Shown piece by piece: positions 9,516-60,319 of a stretch of 64,000 bases of DNA (position 1 is its first letter; the number at the start of each line of letters is the position of its first letter). The notes beneath the pieces are model-generated. The model did not search any database, had not been told where the DNA came from, and saw only the letters and a program-made list of their open reading frames with translations. The position numbers and the translations under genes are program-made. The stretch comes from Quillaja saponaria (Eukaryota > Streptophyta > Magnoliopsida > Fabales > Quillajaceae), in assembly GCA_029379385.1 (NCBI GenBank), contig CM055612.1, positions 18,662,001-18,726,000 on the forward strand, written 5' to 3'.

Positions 9516-11540
9516 TAAATATGCAGAACCCGTTCCCTTTCCTTTTCCTTTTCCTTCTATTCTTTCTTCCATTTCTCTCAAGTTTTGTCTTATACATTCC
9601 CCCTAAAGCAATAGCCATAGAGATTTATCTTGCCACGACCTTCCAGCCTTTCGCTGCCGTCCAACCCCTAAACCTCGTCCATCTCTTCTGGTATTCACTA
9701 CATCAGTACCCAGGTTCCCATAAGCTAGACACTGAAATCTAAATGCATATTTGTGAACCCTTGAAATTGTATGTTTTAAGTGAAGAGCTTACTTTTAGGT
9801 GGAAATGGTGAACAAGAGACTTGAAAATGTAAACTTATATATTTCTTTATTTATTTTTATTATTTTAGAGAGTTATGGAGTTTTAAGTTTAAATAAACTT
9901 AGTGTTTTCACTAATTTTTTACCTAAGAATATTATATTTTCGGTGATTATTATTGATCAAAAAGTGGTATAAAATTGTGGATCCATGTGAGTTTTTCGTA
10001 GACACTATAAACATGTGAAACAAGTTTATATTGAGAGAGAATCAAAGGCTCAAAGAGGCAACCATAAAACTTAAAAATCTGAATTTTAGGGAAGATTATG
10101 AATAGTTCCTTTCGAAACTCACTCTTAGGTTAGAATAAATATAGACAATGTGGCCCACCCCGATGCCTACATTTGTTGAAATTTTGAAAGTAGGCTCTAT
10201 GAATATTTTAAAATTAAATAACCAAATTTCATAAGTTTTGAAACTTTCTACTATTTGTAGGAATTTAACAATGTCATTGAGCATGTTGTACAATTTACAT
10301 TGATATGTTGAAATTTGATATCCTAAAATAGCAATATAATTTCTTTAGAAATGTTTATCGGTACTAAGGTGTGTGGGTTAATTAAACACATTTGAATTAT
10401 TACTTCATATTTATCATACATTTAGCTATGTAATAATAGTTAAGATGTCTTGCAAAATTGTTATGGATGTCCAAAGAGACATACTCACACTTTTAAGTTG
10501 AGTTCAAAGTTATCAAGGTTTATAAATCTTAAATCAAATTATGTTCTCATGGGAGATATTTTTGATTTTAGATAGGTCTTGGAAACAAAGTTTTTGTAAT
10601 TATCCTACATTCTTCTTGCTTCTATTTTCTTCCTTTTTTGGTAGATTGAAACTAATCAAAAAGTGTTGGGGATTGCCTAAGGAATATGCCTTGTTGTGTT
10701 GTAAGATACCTTTGTGTGATTCTAAGTTTGTACTTAGTAGTGGGTTCAATGGATGAGCTGCACATAGATGAAAATTTTTAAGATTAGGAATTAACTTAGA
10801 GTCTGTCACTTTAGAGACATAATTGCAACAAATACCCAAATTAACCCCATGCATGTTGCTTGTAGCCCCTTTTTATTGTTTGGGCTCTGGTTTTGCCAAA
10901 GATATTTGTCTTATGGCTTATTTGGTGAAACTTACAATAGTATGTCGTTTACACTAAGCACAATATCCTTAAACCTTCTCCATCATTACTAAACTTGAGT
11001 TTATTAGCTAATAATTAATTTTAACTTCACTTTTAAAGCGTTTTTTAATTATCTGTTTTGATCAGCTCAAACAAGTATTCAGTTGAGCATTACAAGGAAT
11101 GAGTGGTTATCATGTGGTCATGTGTCAGAATATTAGGAAAGGAAAATGTAATGTAAGATGTATTCTTTAAGAGTGAGTTTTTTTTTTTTTTTTTTTCGAT
11201 GTAACTTGTTTTTAGTTTCTAGATGCTGGTCATTTCCATACTAATATTGATTTTTTTCAATGTAGCTATTAGAAATGATGCGTCATTCAGATTCCATTTT
11301 TTTAGTTCAAACTTAAATCCAGATTCGAATTCCACCCTTAACTATATATTGAGAAGGAGATCCTATTAATTTTATTTTATTTTAAACTTAATTTCATCAT
11401 TATTACTTGAGCAAGGGAGGTTGCATTCTCCAAACAATTAAAATGAATGTTTCACTCTGCAATTGAATACTTACATGGAGTTATCTAATTATTTAGTCCA
11501 TTAATTACTCTCCGCCTATTGACCAAATACAACTGTTTTC
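9516..11540. other. AT-rich stretch, no recognised gene
   Basis: Holds a 73-codon hydrophobic open frame (9521-9742) without recognisable family features, probably chance sequence inside the transposon-like region. No RNA gene or further element was recognised. A poly-T run lies at about 11178-11196. Confidence 0.4.
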
Positions 11541-11626
11541 AACCAAAAATAAGACGAAATCCTCTAAAAAAGGAAATAGCTACAACCAAAAATAAGAAGA
11601 CATCCTCTAAAAAAGGAAATAGCTAC
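11541..11626. repeat. 43-bp tandem duplication upstream of the peptide gene
   Basis: Two adjacent copies (11541-11583 and 11584-11626) of a unit starting aaccaaaaataag, differing by a few bases in the middle. It lies about 330 bp upstream of the start codon of the repeat-peptide gene, so it could be a promoter duplication. Confidence 0.8.
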
Positions 11627-11875
11627 ATTAGATTTTTTACCAAAAAAAATGAAAGGAAATAAACATATCTTCTTCATCAGACCACACTAACAATTAATTA
11701 ACCAAATTAAGAGGGGTGAAATGCATGAATTAAGACTAATTACATGAATTTTGTGGGTTTTAGAAAAGAATGAATGAATTAAAAATTTGGAAATTTTATT
11801 CATTCACAAAATCTAATTCATAGATCAACTTTCTGTTTCAGAAGATATTTATCTATTTCAAATTTCAATCCCTAT

Positions 11876-11883
11876 TATAAATA
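11876..11883 (+). promoter_or_regulatory. TATA box of the repeat-peptide gene
   Basis: TATAAATA lies 76 bp before the ATG at 11952. Transcription would start near 11905-11915, giving a short AC-rich leader typical of plant genes. Confidence 0.6.
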
Positions 11884-11951: not shown

Positions 11952-14065
11952 ATGGCTTCTTCAATAGTATTATGCCTTTGTTTCTTATTTGCTTTTGCAA
12001 CAATGTGTTTTGCTCGTAGCGTTCCCTCAGGTTTGCACCTTTATATTTTTTTCAAGTTCGTTAAATTCTTTGAAACTTTTTCCTTCATTCTTTAGTTTTT
12101 CTTAGAAGTGATTATAGTCAGTTGTTGGATTGATATTATATTATTAGTACGAGAATTTGAATTTGGATTATTGTGTACGTGTAGCATTACTACATTAACT
12201 GATATATTGTAAGAAATTATTATTATTATTATTATTTGCAGAATCTCTTGAAAGGATGTTAGTTGTAGATTATACACCACCACATACACATCCAAGCCCT
12301 CCTTTAATTTCAAAGAAGACACAATTTGAAACAAATGGTATTTACTTGCATTGCAGGCTCTTCTAACAAAGGAAAATCATTAAATAAAAGTATTATTATT
12401 TTTTATTATTTACAATCATAGTAGTATGTTTTTCTATACAAAAAAACATTTATGTAAGAATTCAAATTTAAAATCTATACTTATCAATGAGAACCAATGT
12501 CTTGAGAACAAGAAGTCACCAGCAACTACATTATAGTTTAATGTTATAAACAACTAATTTGTCCTAAGTAATTGATTTAGTTTAGTTTTTATTTATTTTT
12601 ATTTATTTTTATTTATTTTTATTTTTTACAGAATCTCTTGAAAGGATGTTGGCTGTAGATTATACACCACCACATACACATCCAAACCCTCCTCCAAATT
12701 CAAAGAAGACACAATTTGAAACAAATGGTATGTATACGCATTGTGGGCTCTCTACTACATTAGCAAACTCAACAAAGGAAAATCATTAAATAAAGCATTT
12801 TTATATTTTTAACAATCATAGTAGTATGTTTTCCTATATAAAAACATGCATGTCATAATTCGAATTTAAAATCTCTACTCATCAATGAGAATCAATGCCT
12901 CGAGAACAAGAAGTCACCAACTACTACTTTGCATTTTAATACTATGTGATGATATAGTTAACTATTTGTCTTAAGTAATTGGTTTAGTTTTCTTTACAGA
13001 ATCTCTTGAAAGAATGTTGGTTGTAAATTATACACCATCACATACGCATCCAAGCCCTCCTCCAACTACAAAGAAGACACAGTTTGAAACAAATGGTATG
13101 TAAGTAATTGGATTGTGGGCTCTTTACTGCATTAGCAAATGCAATAAAGAAAATAATTAAAATAAATAAAAATTATATGGTTTACAATCGTAGTAGACAC
13201 AATTTGAAACAAATGGTATGTACTTGCATTGCAGGCTCTTTACGACATTAGCAAATGATTCTCATTGATGAAAGTATTATATTTTAATGTGATGATATAA
13301 ATAAACTAATTTGTCTTAAGTAATTGATTTAGCTTTTTTTTTTTTTTTTTTTTTTCACAGAATCTCTTGAAAGGATGTTGGTTGTAGATTATACACCACC
13401 ACACACACATCCAAACCCTCCTCCAACTGCAAAGAAGACACAATTTGAAACAAATGGTATGTAAGTACTCGGATTGTGGGCTCTTTACTACATTAGCAAA
13501 TGCAACAAAGAAAAAAAAATTATATGGTTTACAATCATGGTAGTATGTTTTTCTATATAAAAAAAATGCATGTAAGAATTCGAATTTAAAATCTCTACTC
13601 ATTAATGTCTTGAGAACAAGTCACCAGCAACTACATTATATTTTAATGTGATTATATAAATAAACTAATTTGTCTTAAGTAATTGATATAGCTTTTTTTT
13701 TCTTTTTTTCTTTTTTTTTTTACAGAATCTCTTGAAAGGATGTTGGTTGTAGATTATACACCACCACATACACATCCAAACCCTCCTCCAACTGCAAAGA
13801 AGACACAATTTGAAACAAATGGTATGTAAGTACTCGGATTGTGGGCTCTTTACTACATTAGCAAATGCAACAAAGAAAAAAAATTTATATGGTTTACAAT
13901 CGTGGTAGTATGTTTTTCTATATAAAAAACATGCATGTAAGAATTCAAATTTAAAATCTCTACTCATCAATGAGAATCAATGTCTTGAGAATAACAAGTC
14001 ACCAGTAACTACATTATATTTTAATGTGATGATATAAATAACTAATTTGTCTTAAGTAATTGATT

Positions 14066-14096
<31 letters not shown>

Positions 14097-17000
14097 ACAG
14101 AATCTCTTGAAAGGATGTTGGTTGTAGATTATACGCCACCACATACACATCCAAACCCTCCTCCAACTGCAAAGAAGACACAATTTGAAACAAATGGTAT
14201 GTAAGTACTCGGATTGTGGGCTCTTTACTACATTAGCAAATGCAACAAAGAAAAAAAAATTATATGGTTTACAATCGTGGCAGTATGTTTTTCTATATAA
14301 AAAAAATGCATGTAAGAATTCGAATTTAAAATCTCTACTCATCAATGAGAATCAATGTCTTGAGAATAACAAGTCACCAGTAACTACATTATATTTTAAT
14401 GTGATGATATAAATAACTAATTTGTCTTAAGTAATTGATTTAGCTTTTTTTTTTTTTTTTTTTTTTCTTTTTTTTTTCTTTTTTTTAACAGAATCTCTTG
14501 AAAGGATGTTGGTTGTAGATTATACACCACCACATACACATCCAAACCCTCCTCCAACTGCAAAGAAGACACAATTTGAAACAAATGGTATGTAAGTACT
14601 CGGATTATGGGCTCTTTACTACATTAGCAAATGCAACAAAGAAAAAAAAATTATATAGTTTACAATGGTAGTATGTTTTTCTATATAAAAAAAATGCATG
14701 TAAGAATTCGAATTTAAAATCTCTACTCATCAATGTCTTGAGAACAACAAGTCACCAGCAACTACATTATATTTTAATGTGATTATATAAATAAACTAAT
14801 TTGTCTTAAGTAATTGATTTAGCTTTTTTTTTTTTTTTTTTTTTTACAGAATCTCTTGAAAGGATGTTGGTTGTAGATTATACACCACCACATACACATC
14901 CAAACCCTCCTCCAACTGCAAAGAAGACACAATTTGAAACAAATGGTATGTAAGTACTCGGATTGTGGGCTCTTTACTACATTAGCAAATGCAACAAAGA
15001 AAAAAAATTTATACGGTTTACAATCGTGGTAGTATGTTTTTCTATATAAAAAACATGCATGTAAGAATTCAAATTTAAAATCTCTACTCATCAATGAGAA
15101 TCAATGTCTTAAGAATAACAAGTCACCAGTAACTACATTATATTTTAATGTGATGATATAAATAAACTAATTTGTCTTAAGTAATTGATTTAGCTTTTTC
15201 TTTTTCTTTTTTTTTTCTTTTTTTTTCTTTTTTTTAACAGAATCTCTTGAAAGGATGTTGGTTGTAGATTATACACCACCACATACACATCCAAACCCTC
15301 CTCCAACTGCAAAGAAGACACAATTTGAAACAAATGGTATGTAAGTACTCGCAATATGGGCTCTTTACGACATTAGCAAATGCAACAAAGAAAAAGAATT
15401 TATATGGTTTACAATCGTGGTAGTATGTTTTTCTATATAAAAAACATGCATGTAAGAATTCAAATTTAAAATCTCTACTCATCAATGAGAATCAATGTCT
15501 TGAGAATAACAAGTCACCAGTAACTACATTATATTTTAATGTGATGATATAAATAACTAATTTGTCTTAAGTAATTGATTTAGCTTTTTTTTTTTTTTTT
15601 TTTTTTTTTTACAGAATCTCTTGAAAGGATGTTGGTTGTAGATTATACGCCACCACATACACATCCAAACCCTCCTCCAACTGCAAAGAAGACACAATTT
15701 GAAACAAATGGTATGTAAGTACTCGGATTGTGGGCTCTTTACTACATTAGCAAATGCAACAAAGAAAAAAAAATTATATGGTTTACAATCGTGGCAGTAT
15801 GTTTTTCTATATAAAAAAAATGCATGTAAGAATTCGAATTTAAAATCTCTACTCATCAATGAGAATCAATGTCTTGAGAATAACAAGTCACCAGTAACTA
15901 CATTATATTTTAATGTGATGATATAAATAACTAATTTGTCTTAAGTAATTGATTTAGCTTTTTTTTTTTTTTTTTTTTTTTCACAGAATCTCTTGAAAGG
16001 ATGTTGGTTGTAGATTATACGCCACCACATACACATCCAAACCCTCCTCCAACTGCAAAGAAGACACAATTTGAAACAAATGGTATGTAAGTACTCGGAT
16101 TGTGGGCTCTTTACTACATTAGCAAATGCAACAAAGAAAAAAAAATTATATGGTTTACAATCGTGGCAGTATGTTTTTCTATATAAAAAAAATGCATGTA
16201 AGAATTCGAATTTAAAATCTCTACTCATCAATGAGAATCAATGTCTTGAGAATAACAAGTCACCAGTAACTACATTATATTTTAATGTGATGATATAAAT
16301 AACTAATTTGTCTTAAGTAATTGATTTAGCTTTTTTTTTTTTTTTTTTTTTTTCACAGAATCTCTTGAAAGGATGTTGGTTGTAGATTATACGCCACCAC
16401 ATACACATCCAAACCCTCCTCCAACTGCAAAGAAGACACAATTTGAAACAAATGGTATGTAAGTACTCGGATTGTGGGCTCTTTACTACATTAGCAAATG
16501 CAACAAAGAAAAAAAATTTATATGGTTTACAATCGTGGTAGTATGTTTTTCTATATAAAAAACATGCATTTAAGAATTCGATTTTAAAATCTCTAATCAT
16601 CAATGAGAATCAATGTCTTGAGAACTACAAGTCACCAATAATTACTTTACATTTTAATACTATATGATAATATAATTAACTAATTTGTCTTGAGTAATTG
16701 ATTTAGTTTTCTTTACAGAATCTCTTGAAAGGATGTTGGTTGTTGATTATACACCACCACATACGCATCCAAACCCTCCTCCAACTTCAAAGAAGACACA
16801 ATTTGAAAAAAATGGTTTGTACATACTCGCATTATTGAATAAAACATTTTTATATTTTGTACGAATATAGTAGTATGTTTTTCTATAAAAATAAATAAAT
16901 AAATACATGCATGTAAGAATTTGAATTTAAAATCTCTACTCATCAATGAGAATCAATGTCTTGAGAACAAGTCACCAACTACTTTACATTTTCATACTAT

Positions 17001-17514
17001 GTGATGATTTAATTAACTATTTTGTCTTAAGTAATTGATTTAGTTTTCTTTACAGAGTCTCTTGAAAAAATGTTGGTTTTAGATTATACACCACCACATA
17101 TGCATCCAAGCCCTTCTCCAACTTCAAAGAAGACACAATTTTAAAAAAAATGGTATTTACTTGCATTGTGGGCTCTTTACTGCATTAGCAAATGTAACAA
17201 AGAAAAATCATTAAATAAAACATTTTTATATTTTTTTACAATTGTAGTAGTATGTTTTTATATTGAAAAAAAAATACATGTAAGAATTTGAATTTAAAAT
17301 CTCTACTCATCAATGAGAATTAATGTCTCTAGAACAACAAGTCACCAAAAACTAGTTTACATTTTAATACTATGTGATGATATGATTAATTAATTTATCT
17401 TAAGTAATTGATTTAGTTTTCTTTATAGAATCTCTTGAAAGAATGTTGGTTGTAGATTATACACCACCACATACACACACAAGCCCTCCTCCAAATTCTA
17501 AAGTTAGAATTTAA
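11952..17514 (+). CDS. secreted precursor of repeated DY-motif peptide (RGF/GOLVEN-like), 16 exons
   Basis: Exon 1 (11952-12030) encodes MASSIVLCLCFLFAFATMCF plus ARSVPS, a clear signal peptide cut after CFA. Fifteen repeat exons follow, starting at 12242, 12632, 13000, 13361, 13726, 14101, 14492, 14850, 15241, 15615, 15987, 16359, 16719, 17056 and 17429. The first thirteen are exactly 96 nt and phase 1-1, so each adds 32 residues in frame. A unit begins ESLERML, holds the core DYTPPHTHPNPPP and ends with KKTQFETN. Nine consecutive units (exons 5-13) are identical in protein. Exon 4 has Asn for the core Asp (NY); exon 15 is 97 nt with TAA at 17142-17144; exon 16 ends at TAA 17512-17514. The product is about 470 residues either way. 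Asp-Tyr is the sulfation motif of plant TPST, and the Pro-rich core suggests hydroxyproline. The RGF/GOLVEN/CLEL link is inference: the His-Asn end is absent. Confidence 0.75.
13193..13217 (+). pseudogene. fragment of a repeat exon inside intron 4
   Basis: Between exons 4 and 5 of the repeat-peptide gene, the last bases of a repeat exon (gacacaatttgaaacaaatg) reappear with their donor site gtatgt, but without an acceptor or the 5' part of the exon. It is the scar of a partly deleted repeat unit. Confidence 0.75.
13361..16718 (+). repeat. tandem array of about 372-bp exon-intron units
   Basis: Nine successive units (exons 5-13 with their introns) spaced 365, 375, 391, 358, 391, 374, 372, 372 and 360 bp apart. 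Introns are nearly as alike as exons, including the landmarks 'gtatgtaagtactcgga', 'ctctactcatcaatgag' and 'gtcttaagtaattga'. Each acceptor follows a long pure poly-T tract of variable length. Exons 7, 11, 12 and 13 share a silent change (ACG for ACA after the core Tyr), marking recently copied units. The pattern fits unequal crossing-over. Confidence 0.9.
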
Positions 17515-20699: not shown

Positions 20700-23600
20700 T
20701 AGGAAAGGATTTTCACATAATAACTAAGGACAATGAAAATAAGTGCAAACAAGAGGGAGGATGTAGAAAAGCAAGTTAAGCTACCTTGGTGAATCCTATC
20801 ATAATTATTAAAAATTTCTTGTTTTCCATCTTTTCCGAAATCTTCTTCCTGCATGAAATACACAAAAGCAAAAATGAAGAAGTCTATTATGTCATTTACT
20901 GATTTACCCTTTTTGACATAACATAGGACCCTCTTCTCCCCTTTTATTTTTCTAATCACCAAAGCTTGCTTCTAAGAGCAGCCAAGTAGCTAACAATACA
21001 AACAAAAATATTAAAATCAATGTACATGCATATCTAAACATAAAACTTCTACATAAAGACTAAGACACAACATGATGGAGTGGCCACAACATGATGAAGT
21101 ATTAGTAAGCTTGAGAAACTCATGTTTATATGTTACTGAGAGGTAGGAACACATGATTACGTAGGATCTCCAGAGTTGGAGTTGTGACTTTGCACGTAAA
21201 ATACTAAATTGTGAATAGTATCGAGAATAAAATTGGATATGGAAGACAAATGTGGAGAAAAGGATAAAAAGTATCTCAAAGAACTCCCAAGAAAGTCCAC
21301 ATATATCATTTGATTTAACCTTTTGAGAACAAAATTATGATTGCAAATTAACTACTCAATCTCTTAACTAAAACAACTTTACTAACAGATGAAGAAAATG
21401 GAAGAAAATATATAGATATTCCACTACTCTAGAAAAATAAGAACTATGAAAGTACCAAGTTCGATATTCTACAAACCAAAAACTCATCTTTTATCCACTT
21501 TGTCTTTACTTTGATAGCAACATATAACTAAGTATCCACTTTGTCTTTACTTCATTTAGTGAGCAGAAGCTCTGCCTTGGTGCCCTTCATACTAGAACAA
21601 GTAAGAAAAGAAAGATATTTCAATCAAATTGTACCATTATAAAGTATGCATTCACTTCCAGAAAGTTTTCTTAGACCTATTAAAATCATAATAAAATCAC
21701 TCTCCGATGTCCAAGTTAAATGTAAAATTTTAGGAGAAATACATATGAATATGGGAAACTAATGATACTATGAAAATGCTTACCTAAATTTTCTCTTTTC
21801 TTGCAACTGACTCCTAATCTTTAGCTACAATTCCAGATCTCTAGTCAAGATTGACACTTACATCTCCACCTCCTTGTTGATACCAATCCACCCAGAAACA
21901 TGCGAGCTAATTGCCAGCCTCTTGAGTTGTAAATGCAAATTGACTGTGTTGTATTCTCCTGATGGTGAAGATTGTTCACATATGGTGATGTCACCTGAAG
22001 AAACAATCACCATTAAAAACTGGAATAGAAAATTCAACTGAAAAAAAATTCACTTAAAAGTATATCCTGAGTTGACTTTACTACCCAGATAAGTTTTGCT
22101 GGAGAAGATAAGAACTAAGAAATAATATAAGTAGTCTTCACAACTGTCCTTGCCCAAGCCACATGATTCAAGAAAGGGACTTCTATATAGACATTTAAAA
22201 CTGACTAATATCGGTCGATGATGATAACTTGATCAAGAAGTACTTGCATTTTACCCACCATAAATCAGCATCCACTAACACAGCCTATATAAGCCCCTTT
22301 TATTAAATGAATAAAATGTCCCTACTGTGCTACCAGCCAACTAAGCAAGTTTAGGTAGCCAGGTGACCATGGCCAAACATCTACATGCGAGTCTTAGTGT
22401 GGAGTTGCCGTCTTCATTAGTACAAAGTTGTGTTGGTCTATAGACTGTGTATACAGGGGAAAGCTTAATGATGGAATTGAACACCAATTTTCCCCTATTT
22501 TTAATATGAAGATGACCCCAAAACTGAGGCATCTCACACTGAATTCCTTGACCATTTGATTAATGAAATTATATTTGTTCAAAGTCTACTTAAGGTCTCG
22601 GGAATTATAGTTGTAAATGGCCAACTCAATAACAGTATAGCAGGAGGTGCCAGTAAACATGCATTTAATAAGCACGTGAACATAATAAAACATGTTAGAT
22701 ATAGAGCTCCCAGCATATGACATGAAAAATAAGCCAAGATATGAGATACAACTGACAAAATTTTCACCAGTAATTGTAAACCACCTCAAAAGTGTCCAAA
22801 AAAAAAAAAAACTAGTTTACTATCATCTTTATCCTTCTTTATTTTCATTCTTGCAAAAGATGAAAATCCCTAACTACCTATTTCTCTCATGCATATTGTA
22901 AACCATCCATTGGATCACACATAATTCATCTTTTACAAGACTGCGCATAAAATAACCAGTATATTCCCGATACAAATAAGAATTGACCCAATCTTAGACC
23001 ATGCCAATCATGATTTGGGAAATAAAACCCAATATTGGCCAAAAAGAGAAATTCTACACCAGGCACAGAACAGGCAGGGCATATACAATATACGTGCAGC
23101 ATAGCCATTAACTCGCTATTTAGTATTTACTTTATAAGCCGAACAAATATCTTATACCCACCACCATTCACTATCAAATTTTCCTCATTTTTCATTCATC
23201 AACCAATCTAATACATAATCAAGGAGAAAAATCTACCGTACAATTTGAAACCCTAATAAATTGACAATTTAACAAACCCAGGAAAGGAAATTAGATTGGG
23301 TATCTCAAATGATCGATGAAAAGCTGAAATTCCATACCTTGACTGCAATGGTGGGGTTAGATGAAGGATCATCTGAAACTACAATGTAATCCACCAAAAC
23401 AACGACATTGTTCTGAATTTCTTCGAAAACACACTTGGTCCTGGTGGTCGGTAAGTTGAGCCATATAGCATGAGCTGGTCGTACAAGACTACTGGTGAAG
23501 AAGACTGGGACAACTAAGAATGGCAACCAGAGAGCTCTCTTCCCCATATTCCCTCTCTTCTTTTTCTCTCTATAGAACAAATTTGTATCTCGTGCAAAGA

Positions 23601-23972
23601 ATGAAAGTACTTAAAAACAATGAAGTGCGTACCAAGGCTAGATAGGTTTGGCCTTTGACGTTATTCCAAAAACTTTGGATCTGCCTCACGCCATTGGCTA
23701 AGTTGACCTCACTGTCATCTTTAGTTAATCGCATAAGATAGGAAGGCTTGGGTAAAAGAGATCAACGGCGGCCAAGGCATGGAGGCAGTGGGGAAGGCTT
23801 GCCGGCAGCTGCTAATGAAGAATTAGATCGAGAGAGGAAGAGATGAAAATTAACTATCTTACTCGAGGCACAAAGAAAACAAGTGTGCCCATGTTTTAAT
23901 TTGGGAATTTTACTGTCAGACACCACAAAAAGCCGTTGCTAATACTCTAATAACTTTAAAATAACAAAAAAA
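19494..23972. mobile_element. CACTA element inserted in copia, carrying a p24-delta gene copy
   Basis: Left end CACTACAAGAAAATTCAG at 19494, followed by many subterminal repeats of the type 'tatcagagac' and 'tctctgata' (19511-19740). The right end (23900-23972) is degenerate, but its reverse complement still aligns with the left end over about 30 bases (GTATCAGAGATCGCTAA against GTTATTAGAGTATTAGCAA). Copia pol reads into both edges on the minus strand, and both edges carry ATA (19491-19493 and 23973-23975), the 3-bp duplication expected for CACTA. No transposase was found. The body holds a broken p24-delta gene copy (21784-23547), so this is a Pack-type, non-autonomous element. Confidence 0.7.
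21784..23547 (-). pseudogene. p24-delta (transmembrane emp24 domain) cargo receptor pseudogene fragment
   Basis: Exon 1 (23547-23338, minus) is open: signal peptide MGKRALWLPFLVVPVF through PAHA, then IWLNLP, a TKCVFEEIQNN segment and SDDPSSNPTIAVK. This is the start of the GOLD domain of plant p24-delta proteins, which cycle between ER and Golgi in COPI/COPII vesicles. Exon 2 (21994-21784) begins VTSPY-NNLHH as in the family, then has a frameshift. In the restored family frame there are four stops (after EAGN, VNLD, VAKD and KEKI). The last two family exons (coiled coil, membrane span, dilysine tail) were not found. Splice sites at both exon ends remain, so it came from genomic DNA, probably captured by the surrounding CACTA element. 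Confidence 0.8.
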
Positions 23973-41008: not shown

Positions 41009-42040
41009 CACAATTCAGATGTTGTTGGGTATGTTGGCTATGATGTCAGTTGCGAGGTTGCAACGACGTCGTATTGAAATTTGCACATGGAGTACTTACA
41101 AGGTGGCACCGCTGCTGACTTAGCATATCTAATTGGCGGGAAGGATGATGACGTGGACTAGAGGGTTGTAAGATACAATACCTGGTGTGTGGTTAAGGAC
41201 TCAGTTGCGTACAGTCGCGGGGCATCGCGTATTGTGACGTTAAAGGAAAGAACATTCTAGTGGGACCTAATTCCATTATAGCCAAACTCACTAATTTTGG
41301 CTCGGCCATGGAATATTCAAAAGACACGAGGAGAGATGTCATTGTACCACGTGGGAGCCCTGTAAGGATGTGCCAGAAGTAATTCGCCTGGAATTACAAA
41401 GTCCGGAGCCAAATTTTTGGTCCTTGGGCTGCACGATCATCAAGATGATAACCGGAAAATCGACATGGAAGGGTCATAGCATTGACACGCTAAGTCTGAT
41501 TGCGTATTCCAATTCATTGCCAGAGTTTTTGGCTCAATTATCAGAAATTAGCTAAGATTTGGTTGAGAAATGTTTACATAAAGACCCGACCTGACTGTGG
41601 AGCTAGGATCAACTACTGCAGCATCCATTTTTATCTTCGGCTTCGCCTAATAAAGTGGTCGATTTGTCTCTCGTTGTGTGCTCGACTGGATGAACTCCAA
41701 TTTCAAACAAAAAAGACGACGATGAAATTAATTTTGATTTGAGTTTGAAGAATATGAAAATTATGGTAAAGGAAGGATTGGTAAATTAGCTTCAAGCATA
41801 GGAGTAAATTGGGAATCGAACGGTTAGGTGAAGATATTAAGTTTGGCATGTGAGACTAAAGCTGTAGGAAGAGAAGAAGGGGAAAGGACAAGTTCGGAAT
41901 ATCCAGATTTGATCGGGGTAGAAGAGGAAATAATATTGAAAATTAGCAAGGAATATTGCGGATTCATGAATAAAAGCAATTGTGGGAGTTGGGTGCAGAG
42001 TTGGTTGGGGCTGTCGGTATGGTTCACAAAAAGTGGATAA
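41009..42040 (+). pseudogene. MAPKKK17/18-like protein kinase pseudogene, 5'-truncated
   Basis: Without introns, the reading order follows the single-exon plant MEKK-type kinases (MAPKKK17/18 group). It runs SDVVGYVGYDVS, HMEYLQGGTAADLA, AYCDVKGKNILVGPNS, LTNFGSAMEYSKD, VPRGSPV, PEVIRLE, FWSLGCTIIKMITGKSTWK and a C-terminal EYPDLIG segment. The Gly-rich loop and catalytic Lys are missing at the 5' end. HRD has become AYCD, and the metal-binding DFG is NFG. The Asp of the D-x-W-S-x-G motif is also lost (PNFWSLG). Frame changes occur near 41100, 41220 and 41365, with stops at 41553 and beyond. It is catalytically dead and untranslatable as one protein. The GC level is higher than its surroundings, suggesting a fairly recent gene copy. 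Confidence 0.75.
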
Positions 42041-56811: not shown

Positions 56812-57755
56812 TCAACCGGACAACAGACATGAGAACTTTGTCCTAATTTTTACTTCTGAAGCTAGATACACAGGACGACCAATGCTTTGAAGGTGAGTTC
56901 CTAGGGGCCTGAGAACTTGATGATGTCGCACCCACCAACCTTTTAGCCCTTTTCCCTATAGTTGTAGCATAGGTTGGGTTAGGTTTTTTTGGGAGGCTTC
57001 GTGAACCATGTTGTGTTTGACCAATTCTGAGAGCTAGGAACAGCTGACAAATCTTGCTTGTCATTTTGTAGATGTGGCCAGGTTGCCACGTGTATAGCAT
57101 ATTTCTTTCGTTACACTTTTTATTAGTTGTCAAGTCACACTAGTTCCAGTTAGGGTTCTACACATCTTGTTCTTGATATCTTTTTTGGTCTATACATACG
57201 AGTTCTCTTTTATCCATTGTTCAAATGATAATTTATAGCTGACTATTCAATATTCATGAACAAGTTATTTTAAGGCCTGAAAAAATATTCTGAATTATGG
57301 TGAATATAGTAAAATGAGAAATATTCTGAATTATGGTGTCTGGGATTGAGTGTTCTGTGACACTTGTTAAGGAGCATTTATAAAATGCTCTCACTTGTGA
57401 CAGAACTAACCTTGCTAAATTAGAACTTTTTCCATAAGAAAAAAATGAACCCATAATATTAAACAGAAATTTACTATAAAAGATAAAATATAAACTGTTA
57501 AACATCTATTATTAAATTTGACAAAAAGGTCTGTTAAATAGCTACAGCATTTGTATATAAAGCATAATCTAATAAAATGACTATCATACTGATTAAAACC
57601 CGAAAAGCTTGTTGTGATACAAATTGGGAAGAACCAATCATTTCCATAAAACTTGAGACGTTTTCAATACTTGCGTCACACTCTATTGCCAAATATGGAA
57701 AAGGGGTCTTCAACAAGAAACATCATCTGCTCATCTCACGTTCAGATAGAATTGC
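56812..57755. other. clathrin 3' untranslated region and spacer
   Basis: Starts directly after the clathrin TGA. The first 350-400 bases look like an expressed plant 3' UTR (mixed composition); after that it is AT-rich. No other gene was seen. A near-repeat of 'atattctgaattatggtg' occurs twice (about 57284 and 57322). Confidence 0.5.
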
Positions 57756-57765
57756 CTATATATAG
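57756..57765 (+). promoter_or_regulatory. TATA box of the pyruvate decarboxylase pseudogene
   Basis: CTATATATAG lies about 130 bp before the ATG at 57887, followed by a CT-rich leader. Its survival suggests that the whole gene with promoter was duplicated. Confidence 0.5.
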
Positions 57766-57886
57766 GGACACGTACACTCTCTCCCTTTTTCTCAATCTCT
57801 CTCTATACTTCTCTAGAGATCCGTTTCTCTCTGCAATCAATACTGTATACGGACACCGTGCTTGGTTCACTAGACTCGTGCAAACA

Positions 57887-60319
57887 ATGCAACAAGAATG
57901 TGGGCTTCCCTCGCTAAATGGCTCTGTTAATTCAGTCCATTATTCTCACCCTCCTTCAACACTTGCCTCCACTGATGCCACATTGGGTCGCCACCTTGCT
58001 CACCGTCTCGTTGAAATCGGGGTTTAACTTAACGATGTGTTCTCTGAGCATGGTGACTTCAATCTTACGCTTCTTGATCGCCTAATTGCTGACCCTGGAC
58101 TTAACAATATTGGGTGCTGCAATGAACTCAATGCTGGCTATGCGGCTGATGGGTATGCCAGGTCCCGTGGGGTTGGGGCTTGTGTTGTTACTTTTACTGT
58201 GGGTGGACTTAGTGTTCTCAATGCTATTGCTGGGGCTTCTAGTGAGAATCTTCCAGTCATTTTTATTGTGGGGGACCAACAATAAAAACAATGATTATGG
58301 GACTAATAGAATTCTCCATCATACTATTGGATTACCAGACTTCAGTCAAGAAATCAGATGCTTCCAACCCGTCACTTGTTTTCAGGTCAGTACTTCTTTA
58401 TCTGTCTTGTATCAGTTTATATGCTTTATGCAAGGTTTATTGGGTTTTTAGCTTGTCCTTGATGCCATTCTTGCGTTTTTAGCTTGTGGTTTGTCTTTTT
58501 TCTTTTTTTACTTGGGTTGATATGGTGTCACAAATTCTAGTTTTCTTTCTTTATTTTTTTTTTTCCAGCTTTTTTTTTTCTTTTTTTTGAATCATTTTGG
58601 CAATATGGTTTCTTTCTATAATCTGTTTGTAGGCTTTGATAAATAATTTGGAAGATGCACATGAACTGATCGATACAGCTATTTCTAATGCATTGAAAGA
58701 AAGCAAGCCTGTTTATATTAGCATTAGTTGTAATTTGCAGGGGATCCCTCATCCAACTTTTAGCAGAGAGCCCATTCCATTTTCTCTGTCACCAAGGTAT
58801 TAGTTTCTTGGTCCAAACTCTGGTTTCCAGAATTTAGTCCTTCAAGAGAGTATTGATTTTGGTATAATGGTATGGTGATTACAGATTAAGCAACAAGATG
58901 GGGCTAGATGCTGCTGTAGAGGCAACAGTTGCTTTCTTGAACAAGGCAGTGAAGCCAGTCATGGTGGGTGGATGAAAACTCAGAGTGGCTAAAGCTTGTG
59001 AGGCCTTTGTTGAATTGGAAGATGCTTGTGGCTATGCTCTTGCTGAGAGGCCATCTGCAAAAGGGCTGGTTCCTGAGCACCACCTTCACTTCATTGGGAC
59101 ATTCTGGGGAGCTGTATGCACTGCCTTTTGTGCTGAGATTGTTGAATCTGCTGATGCATACTTGTTTGCTGGGCCAAGTTTTATTGGATACAGCTCTGTC
59201 GTTTACTAATTGCTCCTTCAGAAGGAGAAGGCAATTATTGTGCAGCCTGATCGTGTGGTAGTTGCTAATGGCCCTGCTTTTGGTTGTGTACTAATGAAGG
59301 ACTTTCTTCCAGCACTTGCGAAAAGGCTTAACCGGAATACCACTGCTTATGAAAATTATCACAGAATCTACGTCCCAGAGGGGAAACCTCTCAAAGGTGA
59401 ACCTAAAGAGCCTTTGAGGGTAATGTTCTCTGTCAGTATATTCAGAAGATGCTTTCAGGTGAGACAGCTGTTATAGCAGAGACAGGAAATTCCTGGTTTA
59501 TTGTCAGAAACTTAAATTACCAGGACATAATCAGCTTTTGGTGTTTGTCTTAATTGATTTTAAGAACATAAGAGAAAAAAATAATCAAAAGTTGGTGTTG
59601 CAGGTATGAGTTCCAAATGCATTACAGTTCAATTGGGTAGTCTGTTGGTGCCACACTTGGATATGCCCAGTCAGAACCAAAAAAACATGTGATTGCTTGC
59701 ATGGTGATAGGAGCTTCCAGGTGAAAATAGTCTCTATAAAATCCTGAAGCATAGGTCTTACAAGCTTTTTCCAAAATTTAAATGTTTTAATTTGCAAACA
59801 TTATCAAATCTCTCAATACTGTGAAATATAAATCGACTGATGAATAGCTAATATACATTTTGACTTGCTGGTGACTGCACAAGATATCTCAACAATGATA
59901 CCATGCGGGCAAAAGAGCATCATCTTTCTTATAAACAATGGTGGACACACCATAGAAGTTGAAATCCATGATGGTCCTTATAATGTCATCAAGAAACACT
60001 GGCTTAATGGATGCAATCCACAACGGTGAAGGGATGTGCTGGACAACAAAGGTTGGTTTGGTTTACTTGTTGGAATTGAATGGTAGGCTAGGAAATCAAT
60101 AGCAAGAAAATTTTATATATGATTCTTTCTTACTGTTTTTTTGAACCACAGGTCCGCATTGAAGTAGAGCTTGCCGGAGCAATTGAAACAGCAACAGGTG
60201 AGAACAATGATTGCTTGTGCTTCATTAAAGTGATTGTTCACAAGGACGATACCATAACTGCTTGAATGGGGATCTCAAGGGTTTCTGCTGCTAATAGCCG
60301 GTCACCAAATCCGCAATGA
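57887..60319 (+). pseudogene. PDC: pyruvate decarboxylase pseudogene
   Basis: The parent enzyme is thiamine diphosphate-dependent and turns pyruvate into acetaldehyde in fermentation. Nearly the whole protein is traceable, from MQQECGLPSLNGSVNS through [52 protein letters not shown] and YGTNRILHHTIGLPDFSQE to SAANSRSPNPQ followed by TGA. Introns with GT-AG ends remain (for example after 58385), so it is a duplicated, not a processed, copy. Lesions include TAA 58025-58027 with two extra codons, a frameshift near 58265-58290, TGA 58973-58975 and TAA 59207-59209. Near 59695 a base is lost and the cofactor motif GDGS reads GDRS. Further shifts occur near 59990 and a stop near 60263. It cannot make the enzyme. 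Confidence 0.93.

What the first reader, a model, noticed from the sequence alone, without database searches (positions are those of the whole stretch)
11952..17514. Secreted precursor with 15 tandem exons each encoding one DY-motif peptide
Seen: a signal-peptide exon, then repeat exons, 13 of them exactly 96 nt and phase 1-1, each carrying the core DYTPPHTHPNPPP or a variant; the exact 13-mer occurs 11 times. Known: an Asp-Tyr start followed by Pro/His is typical of plant tyrosine-sulfated peptides (RGF/GOLVEN/CLEL, PSY, CIF). Inference: one transcript would deliver many copies of one sulfated, probably hydroxyprolinated ligand. A one-exon-per-peptide array of this size is unlike the classical single-copy precursors of these families.
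Basis: partly seen in the sequence, partly recalled or inferred. Interest (0 to 1): 0.93.

Follow-up and report, generated by a model that had tools for sequence, protein, structure and literature searches.

The report
Plant gene with repeated secreted-peptide exons
A plant gene appears to string together about fourteen nearly identical copies of one short proline- and histidine-rich peptide, one copy per exon, behind a secretion signal, which could let one transcript release many copies of a possible peptide signal that fits none of the families it was compared with.

Summary
The array is real. A signal-peptide exon (11952-12030) is followed by 15 repeat exons; 13 are exactly 96 nt and phase 1-1, and the 13-mer DYTPPHTHPNPPP occurs 11 times. 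One correction: repeat exon 14 is 97 nt and carries an in-frame TAA (17142-17144), so a fully spliced transcript gives 14 units (471 aa); exon 15 is coding only if exon 14 is skipped. Unit 3 has NY instead of DY.
Exons are conserved against their own introns: no exon gaps among full units, against 9-17 distinct intron gaps, and about 3-4 times fewer changes (2 times with unit 14). pN/pS alone (0.50) is not significant. The unit matches nowhere else in its 352-Mb genome at E <= 0.001. No homologous protein was found.
Membership in RGF/GLV/CLEL, PSY or CIF is not supported: beyond DY, the core is no closer to them than its own shuffles. Likeliest reading: a recently amplified multi-core secreted-peptide precursor, cut before each DY and possibly Tyr-sulfated. 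Expression, cutting, sulfation and receptor are inferred. New variant of a known kind.

The parts
11876..11882 (+). TATA-box-like TATAAAT, 76 nt upstream of the ATG
   Evidence: a motif match only
11952..12030 (+). Exon 1: signal peptide, MASSIVLCLCFLFAFATMCFARSVPS, ends in phase 1 before GTTTGC
   Evidence: hydropathy up to 3.2 over 11 residues
12242..12337 (+). Repeat exon 1, 96 nt, core DYTPPHTHPSPPL
12632..12727 (+). Repeat exon 2, 96 nt, exact core
13000..13095 (+). Repeat exon 3, 96 nt, NYTPSHTHPSPPP (no DY)
13197..13215 (+). 3' end of a repeat exon followed by GTATGT, stranded inside intron 3: trace of a lost unit
13361..13456 (+). Repeat exon 4, 96 nt, exact core
13726..13821 (+). Repeat exon 5, 96 nt, exact core
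14101..14196 (+). Repeat exon 6, 96 nt, exact core
14492..14587 (+). Repeat exon 7, 96 nt, exact core
14850..14945 (+). Repeat exon 8, 96 nt, exact core
15241..15336 (+). Repeat exon 9, 96 nt, exact core
15615..15710 (+). Repeat exon 10, 96 nt, exact core; exon plus intron identical to unit 11 over 372 nt
15987..16082 (+). Repeat exon 11, 96 nt, exact core
16359..16454 (+). Repeat exon 12, 96 nt, exact core; its unit is 20-26 substitutions from units 4-11
16719..16814 (+). Repeat exon 13, 96 nt, exact core
17056..17152 (+). Repeat exon 14, 97 nt, DYTPPHMHPSPSP, in-frame TAA at 17142-17144
17429..17514 (+). Repeat exon 15, terminal, DYTPPHTHTSPPPNSKVRI then stop; coding only if exon 14 is skipped

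Best explanation
A plant multi-core precursor of a secreted peptide. One transcript is spliced through the symmetric repeat exons, giving a signal peptide followed by 14 units of about 32 residues (ESLERMLVV-DYTPPHTHPNPPP-TAKKTQFETN), ending at the TAA in repeat exon 14. In the secretory pathway the chain would be cut before each Asp-Tyr, perhaps by an Asp-dependent subtilase as for CLEL6, and near the KK after each core, releasing about 11-13 copies of nearly one peptide. Tyr sulfation, Pro hydroxylation and arabinosylation are plausible. Because each of the 13 full exons is 96 nt and phase 1-1, units can be gained, lost or skipped without breaking the frame; unequal crossing-over has probably expanded units 4-11 recently. 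Shown: gene anatomy, unit identity, exon conservation against introns, recent amplification, no other match in the assembly at E <= 0.001. Inferred: expression, splicing, cleavage, modification, receptor, signalling role.
For: Exact anatomy. Exons against their own introns: units 1, 2, 5, 13 show 11 changes over 96 exon columns against 50 over 148 intron columns (Fisher p 0.0003), 0 exon gaps against 13 distinct intron gaps; units 4-10 and 12 show 4 over 96 against 33 over 182 (p 0.0014), 0 against 9 gaps. Pooled pS 0.139 (units 1, 2, 3, 5, 13, 14, 15) is close to the intron divergence of 0.154 (introns 1, 2, 5, 13, 14), pN is 0.068. KKTQF in 14 of 14 translated units; the N-glycosylation sequon NES at 13 of 13 unit joints. 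TATA-like motif 76 nt upstream. The CLEL6 precedent: SBT6.1, then Asp-dependent SBT3.8 cutting of GEEVVVM-DYPQPHRKPPIHNE (PMC7162652, passages). Multi-core plant precursors are an established kind (PMC11253845 section 2.1).
Against: No RNA or peptide data could be consulted. pN/pS by itself is not significant (0.50; 23% of neutral simulations are as low), and in the same simulations 66% had no stop codon, so open exons alone prove little. The end of the core (NPPP) varies more at amino-acid-changing than at silent sites. Exon 14 is broken and unit 3 has lost DY, so edge units decay. No homologue found, so nothing shows conservation between species. A paper reports that switchgrass genes with multiple TDIFL domains gave no greater activity in Arabidopsis (PMC9532867, passages, citing other work), which weakens the dose argument. 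ERMLV is not a classical RRxL subtilase site (recalled).
Confidence: 0.58

Rival explanations
1. A secreted, uncut, proline-rich repetitive glycoprotein of the cell wall or of defence, whose repeats matter as a chain and not as released peptides.
For: 18.2% Pro, 14.8% Thr and 6.3% His after the first 26 residues; an NES sequon at 13 of 13 joints; the ESLERMLVV stretch is at least as constrained as the core.
Against: The unit is not an extensin or PRP pattern (recalled); Asp-Tyr, charged spacers and a KK in every translated unit look like a spaced precursor.
Confidence: 0.2
2. A decaying or unexpressed tandem duplication: an old gene whose exon-intron unit has amplified by unequal crossing-over and is no longer used.
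For: Exon 14 stop and frameshift; unit 3 without DY; stranded exon piece in intron 3; pN/pS not significant and absence of stops expected in 66% of neutral simulations; no homologues.
Against: 13 of 13 full exons keep exactly 96 nt and an open frame while introns gained gaps; 15 acceptors and 14 donors of the repeat exons keep AG and GT.
Confidence: 0.14
3. A true, highly diverged RGF/GLV/CLEL gene with tandem domains.
For: Pfam GLV1-2 (PF21529) aligns in register with DY: 14.4 bits on the signal peptide plus four units, 13.0 on two units, 31.9 on the whole precursor against a cut-off of 28.1. RGF10 (DYMQPTTHPPHHN) shares 6 of 13 residues.
Against: One unit alone gives no match. The whole-precursor score is a sum over repeats, with 0 stretches passing alone; WRKY (27.3 bits, cut-off 21, 0 stretches) and DUF4734 (53.8 bits, cut-off 25, 6 stretches) also rise above their cut-offs. 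The C-terminal [HN]N is absent. Positions 3-13 match no better than shuffles. None of 203 RGFs surveyed has more than one domain.
Confidence: 0.06

Closest known systems
RGF/GLV/CLEL peptides
   Same: Secreted precursor; Asp-Tyr start; Pro/His-rich 13-mer; CLEL6 context VVVM-DYPQPH resembles LVV-DYTPPH
   Different: No [HN]N C-terminus; 14 domains instead of one; no similarity beyond DY above shuffles
PSY and CIF peptides
   Same: Asp-Tyr start and prolines; DY to unit end is 23 residues ending in N, a length and last residue also seen among CIF peptides
   Different: PSY H11 (9 of 9) and N8 (8 of 9) are absent; no CIF similarity above shuffles (table in PMC11534595)
Wheat 'DYY family' (candidate)
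   Same: A proposed new peptide family whose domain starts with DY, not found in Arabidopsis (PMC9532867, passages)
   Different: Its sequences were not seen, so no comparison was possible
Multi-domain CLE precursors (rice CLE75, six motifs; CLE76, four)
   Same: Several near-identical signal peptides in one precursor, proposed to amplify the signal (PMC2254619, passages)
   Different: Motifs of CLE75 and CLE76 come from a single exon and number two to six in the five proteins reported; here one exon per unit, 14 units, other sequence
Wheat secreted proteins with seven and eight peptide domains
   Same: Many peptide domains in one secreted protein (PMC9532867, passages)
   Different: Placed in the IDA and CLE families there; domains differ; exon layout not seen
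PSK7 and PROSCOOP precursors
   Same: More than one copy of a peptide in a precursor (PSK7 two; 3 of 14 PROSCOOP two)
   Different: Two copies only, unrelated sequences
Flax linusorb (orbitide) precursors
   Same: Long tandem-repeat precursors grown by duplication, 336 repeats in 30 proteins (PMC13365257, passages)
   Different: Cyclic peptides with other flanks and other chemistry

Membership tests
RGF/GLV/CLEL | Signal peptide on the precursor | tested here: met
   Hydrophobic N-terminus by sequence and hydropathy; no trained predictor was used
RGF/GLV/CLEL | Asp-Tyr at the start of the peptide | tested here: met
   13 of 14 translated units; that cutting occurs there is not shown
RGF/GLV/CLEL | C-terminal [HN]N (13 of 13 Arabidopsis entries of the table in PMC11534595; a monocot form ends HH) | tested here: not met
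   Cores end in PPP, PPL or PSP
RGF/GLV/CLEL | Similarity beyond DY | tested here: not met
   Mean BLOSUM62 score 2.0 at positions 3-13 against 16.0-30.4 within the family; 45% of shuffles as good (10 of 13 Arabidopsis entries plus one eudicot form; RGF4, GLV8 and GLV9 left out because not 13 long)
RGF/GLV/CLEL | Pfam GLV1-2 score | tested here: inconclusive
   No match on one unit; 14.4 and 13.0 bits on a few units; 31.9 on the whole precursor by summing repeats, beside WRKY and DUF4734; the 21-residue eCLEL6 control itself scores 27.4; cut-off 28.1
RGF/GLV/CLEL | Single domain per precursor | tested here: not met
   14 domains; each of 203 surveyed RGFs has one, PMC8708909
RGF/GLV/CLEL | Perception by RGI receptors | not testable with these tools
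   Needs binding or a bioassay
PSY | N8, H11, P13 of the motif | tested here: not met
   Core has H8, P11, P13: only P13 fits
CIF | 21-23 residues ending in N or H, P before it in 4 of 5 | tested here: inconclusive
   DY to unit end is 23 residues and ends TN: length and last residue fit, P does not
CIF | Similarity beyond DY | tested here: not met
   82% of 13-mer shuffles as good; for the 23-mer 406 to 1719 of 2000 shuffles as good, by peptide. Weak yardstick: CIF members are themselves diverse
Multi-core secreted peptide precursor | Repeated core with repeated recognition flanks, here behind a signal peptide | tested here: met
   definition from PMC11253845. That the flanks are recognised is not shown
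Multi-core secreted peptide precursor | Cores are released | not testable with these tools
   Needs mass spectrometry
Tyrosine-sulfated peptides | Sulfated Tyr | not testable with these tools
   Only the adjacent Asp is seen

The most novel reading that the evidence does not exclude
A new, lineage-restricted family of Asp-Tyr peptide signals in which ligand dose is set by the number of frame-neutral exons: unequal crossing-over changes the number of copies between individuals, and exon skipping changes it between tissues.
Probability: 0.27. Interest if true: 0.82.

Novelty: new variant of a known kind. Interest (0 to 1): 0.58.

Why it matters
If expressed and cut, it would be a plant counterpart of multi-copy neuropeptide or mating-factor precursors (recalled comparison) for a probable DY peptide, with more copies than the two to six motifs reported for CLE or the seven and eight domains of two wheat proteins, and with each copy on its own exon. 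That would make ligand dose heritable as a copy-number trait, open to direct test by long-read sequencing of accessions.

Tried and rejected
Homologues: two protein searches gave none with E <= 10: 7993 candidates (those sharing most words) scored for the 470-residue query and 6 for the 86-residue query. Lengths of about 151-258 residues were covered by neither, and the third search went to a clathrin exon as a control, which showed that named plant proteins are in that database (120 of 663 hits listed). No PDB match for the unit at E <= 10; one weak NCBIfam match, E 0.12, to an unrelated family.

DUF4734 scores above its Pfam cut-off on the whole precursor (53.8 bits, six stretches), 20.7 on the signal peptide plus four units, 13 on two units and nothing on one. 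I take this as summing over repeats and did not pursue it.

Reverse-strand ORFs recurring through the array were set aside by inspection: they run through introns and A runs, and over the edge units the listed frames differ in sequence (12092-12376, 16713-16952) or none of 75 aa is listed.

pN/pS as proof of coding was tried and is not significant.

Second copy elsewhere: no blastn match in the rest of the window at E <= 0.01 and only weak tblastn matches, E 0.7 or worse; E 2 or worse in 10 kb on either side of the window; none in the genome at E <= 0.001. A looser genome search, a search for classical GLV genes and a DNA search did not complete.

Literature: searches for the core or unit letters found no paper on it (three unrelated letter matches). 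Searches for multi-copy or one-exon-per-peptide plant precursors (listed: 8 of 8; 2 of 2; 25 of 40; 15 of 121; 55, none; 1 of 1; 15 of 23) showed no multi-copy DY precursor, apart from PSK7 with its two YIYTQ copies, in titles, abstract starts or the passages that I opened; (30 of 38) was a general GOLVEN search. Only open-licence PMC papers are covered.

The species was not determined; clathrin hits and snoRNA families (plant origin recalled) point to a flowering plant.
Full report
What is there. Window 11952-17514 (+) holds a signal-peptide exon (11952-12030) and 15 repeat exons, each after AG and, for the first 14, before a GT donor. Thirteen are exactly 96 nt and phase 1-1; each codes (E)SLERMLVV-DYTPPHTHPNPPP-TAKKTQFETN or a variant. 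The exact 13-mer occurs 11 times, in units 2 and 4-13. Tandem Repeats Finder reports most of the array by itself (13276-17424, 372-nt period).

What was missed. Repeat exon 14 is 97 nt with an in-frame TAA at 17142-17144. A fully spliced transcript therefore gives 471 residues with 14 units; unit 15 is translated only if exon 14 is skipped, which the flanking phases allow. The stop lies 8 nt before the end of exon 14, close enough to the last exon joint that nonsense-mediated decay is not expected (general knowledge). Unit 3 has Asn-Tyr, not Asp-Tyr. Of 14 translated units 13 have DYTPPH, 12 DYTPPHTHP and 11 the exact core.

Is it coding? Exons were compared with their own introns, which share their duplication history. 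For units 1, 2, 5, 13 there are 11 changes in 96 exon columns and 50 in 148 intron columns (Fisher p 0.0003), with 0 exon gaps against 13 distinct intron gaps (8.4 expected at the intron rate). With unit 14 added: 21 against 69 changes (p 0.001), 1 exon gap against 14. With unit 3 instead: 18 in 96 against 101 in 126, 0 against 17 gaps, but intron 3 is chimeric. Among the recent units 4-10 and 12: 4 against 33, 0 against 9 gaps (unit 11 is identical to unit 10). The first 6 and last 60 nt of each intron, with the T-tract, were left out. Introns are AT-rich, which probably raises their indel rate, so the gap contrast may be overstated. Representative units (1, 2, 3, 5, 13, 14, 15) give pS 0.139, near the intron divergence of 0.154 (introns 1, 2, 5, 13, 14; 0.211 with intron 3), and pN 0.068. 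On units 1, 2, 3, 5, 13 the ratio is 0.50, but 23% of neutral simulations reach that and 66% show no stop, so these tests alone decide nothing. By segment, ESLERMLVV (pN 0.042, pS 0.238) is at least as constrained as DYTPPHTHP (0.059, 0.123), while NPPP (0.148, 0.043) and TAKKTQF (0.071, 0.080) show no constraint.

History of the array. Units 4-11 differ among themselves by 0-15 substitutions; units 10 and 11 are identical over 372 nt; unit 12 is 20-26 from these; units 1, 2, 3, 13, 14 differ from all others by 37-94. Intron 3 keeps the 3' end of a repeat exon without its 5' part (13197-13215). This is the pattern expected of unequal crossing-over with a homogenised centre and older edges.

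How rare. The genome (351.8 Mb, 213 contigs; window at C8:18662001-18726000) gives 15 matches at E <= 0.001 to the unit, all in this array. Protein searches gave no relatives, although the database holds plant proteins. Proteins of about 151-258 residues were not covered, so absence is provisional.

Mechanism. The nearest worked example is CLEL6: signal peptide removal, SBT6.1 cut, sulfation and Pro hydroxylation, then an Asp-dependent cut by SBT3.8 directly before DYPQPHRKPPIHN (PMC7162652, passages read). The context here, LVV-DYTPPH, could be cut alike, and each translated unit has KK after the core. Sulfation is plausible because TPST depends on an adjacent Asp (same source). An NES sequon arises at each of the 13 unit joints, an observation without known meaning. 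All of this is inference. Against a simple dose effect: multiple TDIFL domains did not raise activity in another case (PMC9532867, passages).

Family. With DY set aside, the core's mean score against 11 RGF peptides is 2.0, while family members score 16.0-30.4 among themselves; 45% of shuffles do as well. For PSY it is 27%, for CIF 82% (sequences from PMC11534595 Table 1, and one from PMC8708909). The 23 residues from DY to the unit's end, which share length and a final N with some CIF peptides, score no better than shuffles against any of the five. The C-terminal [HN]N of RGF and N8/H11 of PSY are absent. Pfam GLV1-2 aligns in register at 13-14 bits and reaches 31.9 on the whole precursor only as a sum over repeats; WRKY and DUF4734 also pass their cut-offs there. 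So it may work like these peptides, but it is not shown to be one of them.

Known kinds. Multi-core precursors are widespread in plants (PMC11253845 section 2.1). CLE proteins with two to six motifs are closest in idea, with the motifs of rice CLE75 and CLE76 in one exon (PMC2254619, passages); 59 multi-CLE genes from 27 species and two wheat proteins with seven and eight domains are also on record, and a wheat candidate family whose domain starts with DY (PMC9532867, passages). PSK7 has two copies and three PROSCOOP proteins have two. RGFs have one domain in all 203 surveyed. New here, as far as these sources go: 14 units, one exon each, around a DY core.

Noticed in passing
[not shown]
   Followed up: no
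window 44.3-56 kb (+): Clathrin heavy chain gene; one exon matches Pfam Clathrin at E 1.8e-68 and plant clathrins in the database. The outer limits are read from open frames.
   Followed up: partly
window 57650-59476 (+): Pyruvate-decarboxylase-like frame (TPP_enzyme_N E 1.3e-21; enzyme name recalled) with a same-frame stop at 58025-58027 and further apparently homologous stretches in another frame: possibly a pseudogene.
   Followed up: partly
window 23308-23610 (-): Possible first exon of a p24/emp24-like gene (below the Pfam cut-off).
   Followed up: no
window 41295-41552 (+): Piece of a protein kinase domain, below the Pfam cut-off.
   Followed up: no
window 11540-11627 (+): 43-nt direct duplication, 95% matches, ending about 325 nt upstream of the ATG, possibly in the promoter.
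   Followed up: no
window 12242-17152: An N-glycosylation sequon NES is formed at each of the 13 joints between translated units, split between two exons.
   Followed up: partly
window 11952-17144, spliced: The whole precursor scores 53.8 bits against Pfam DUF4734 (cut-off 25, six stretches), probably a sum of weak matches over repeats.
   Followed up: partly
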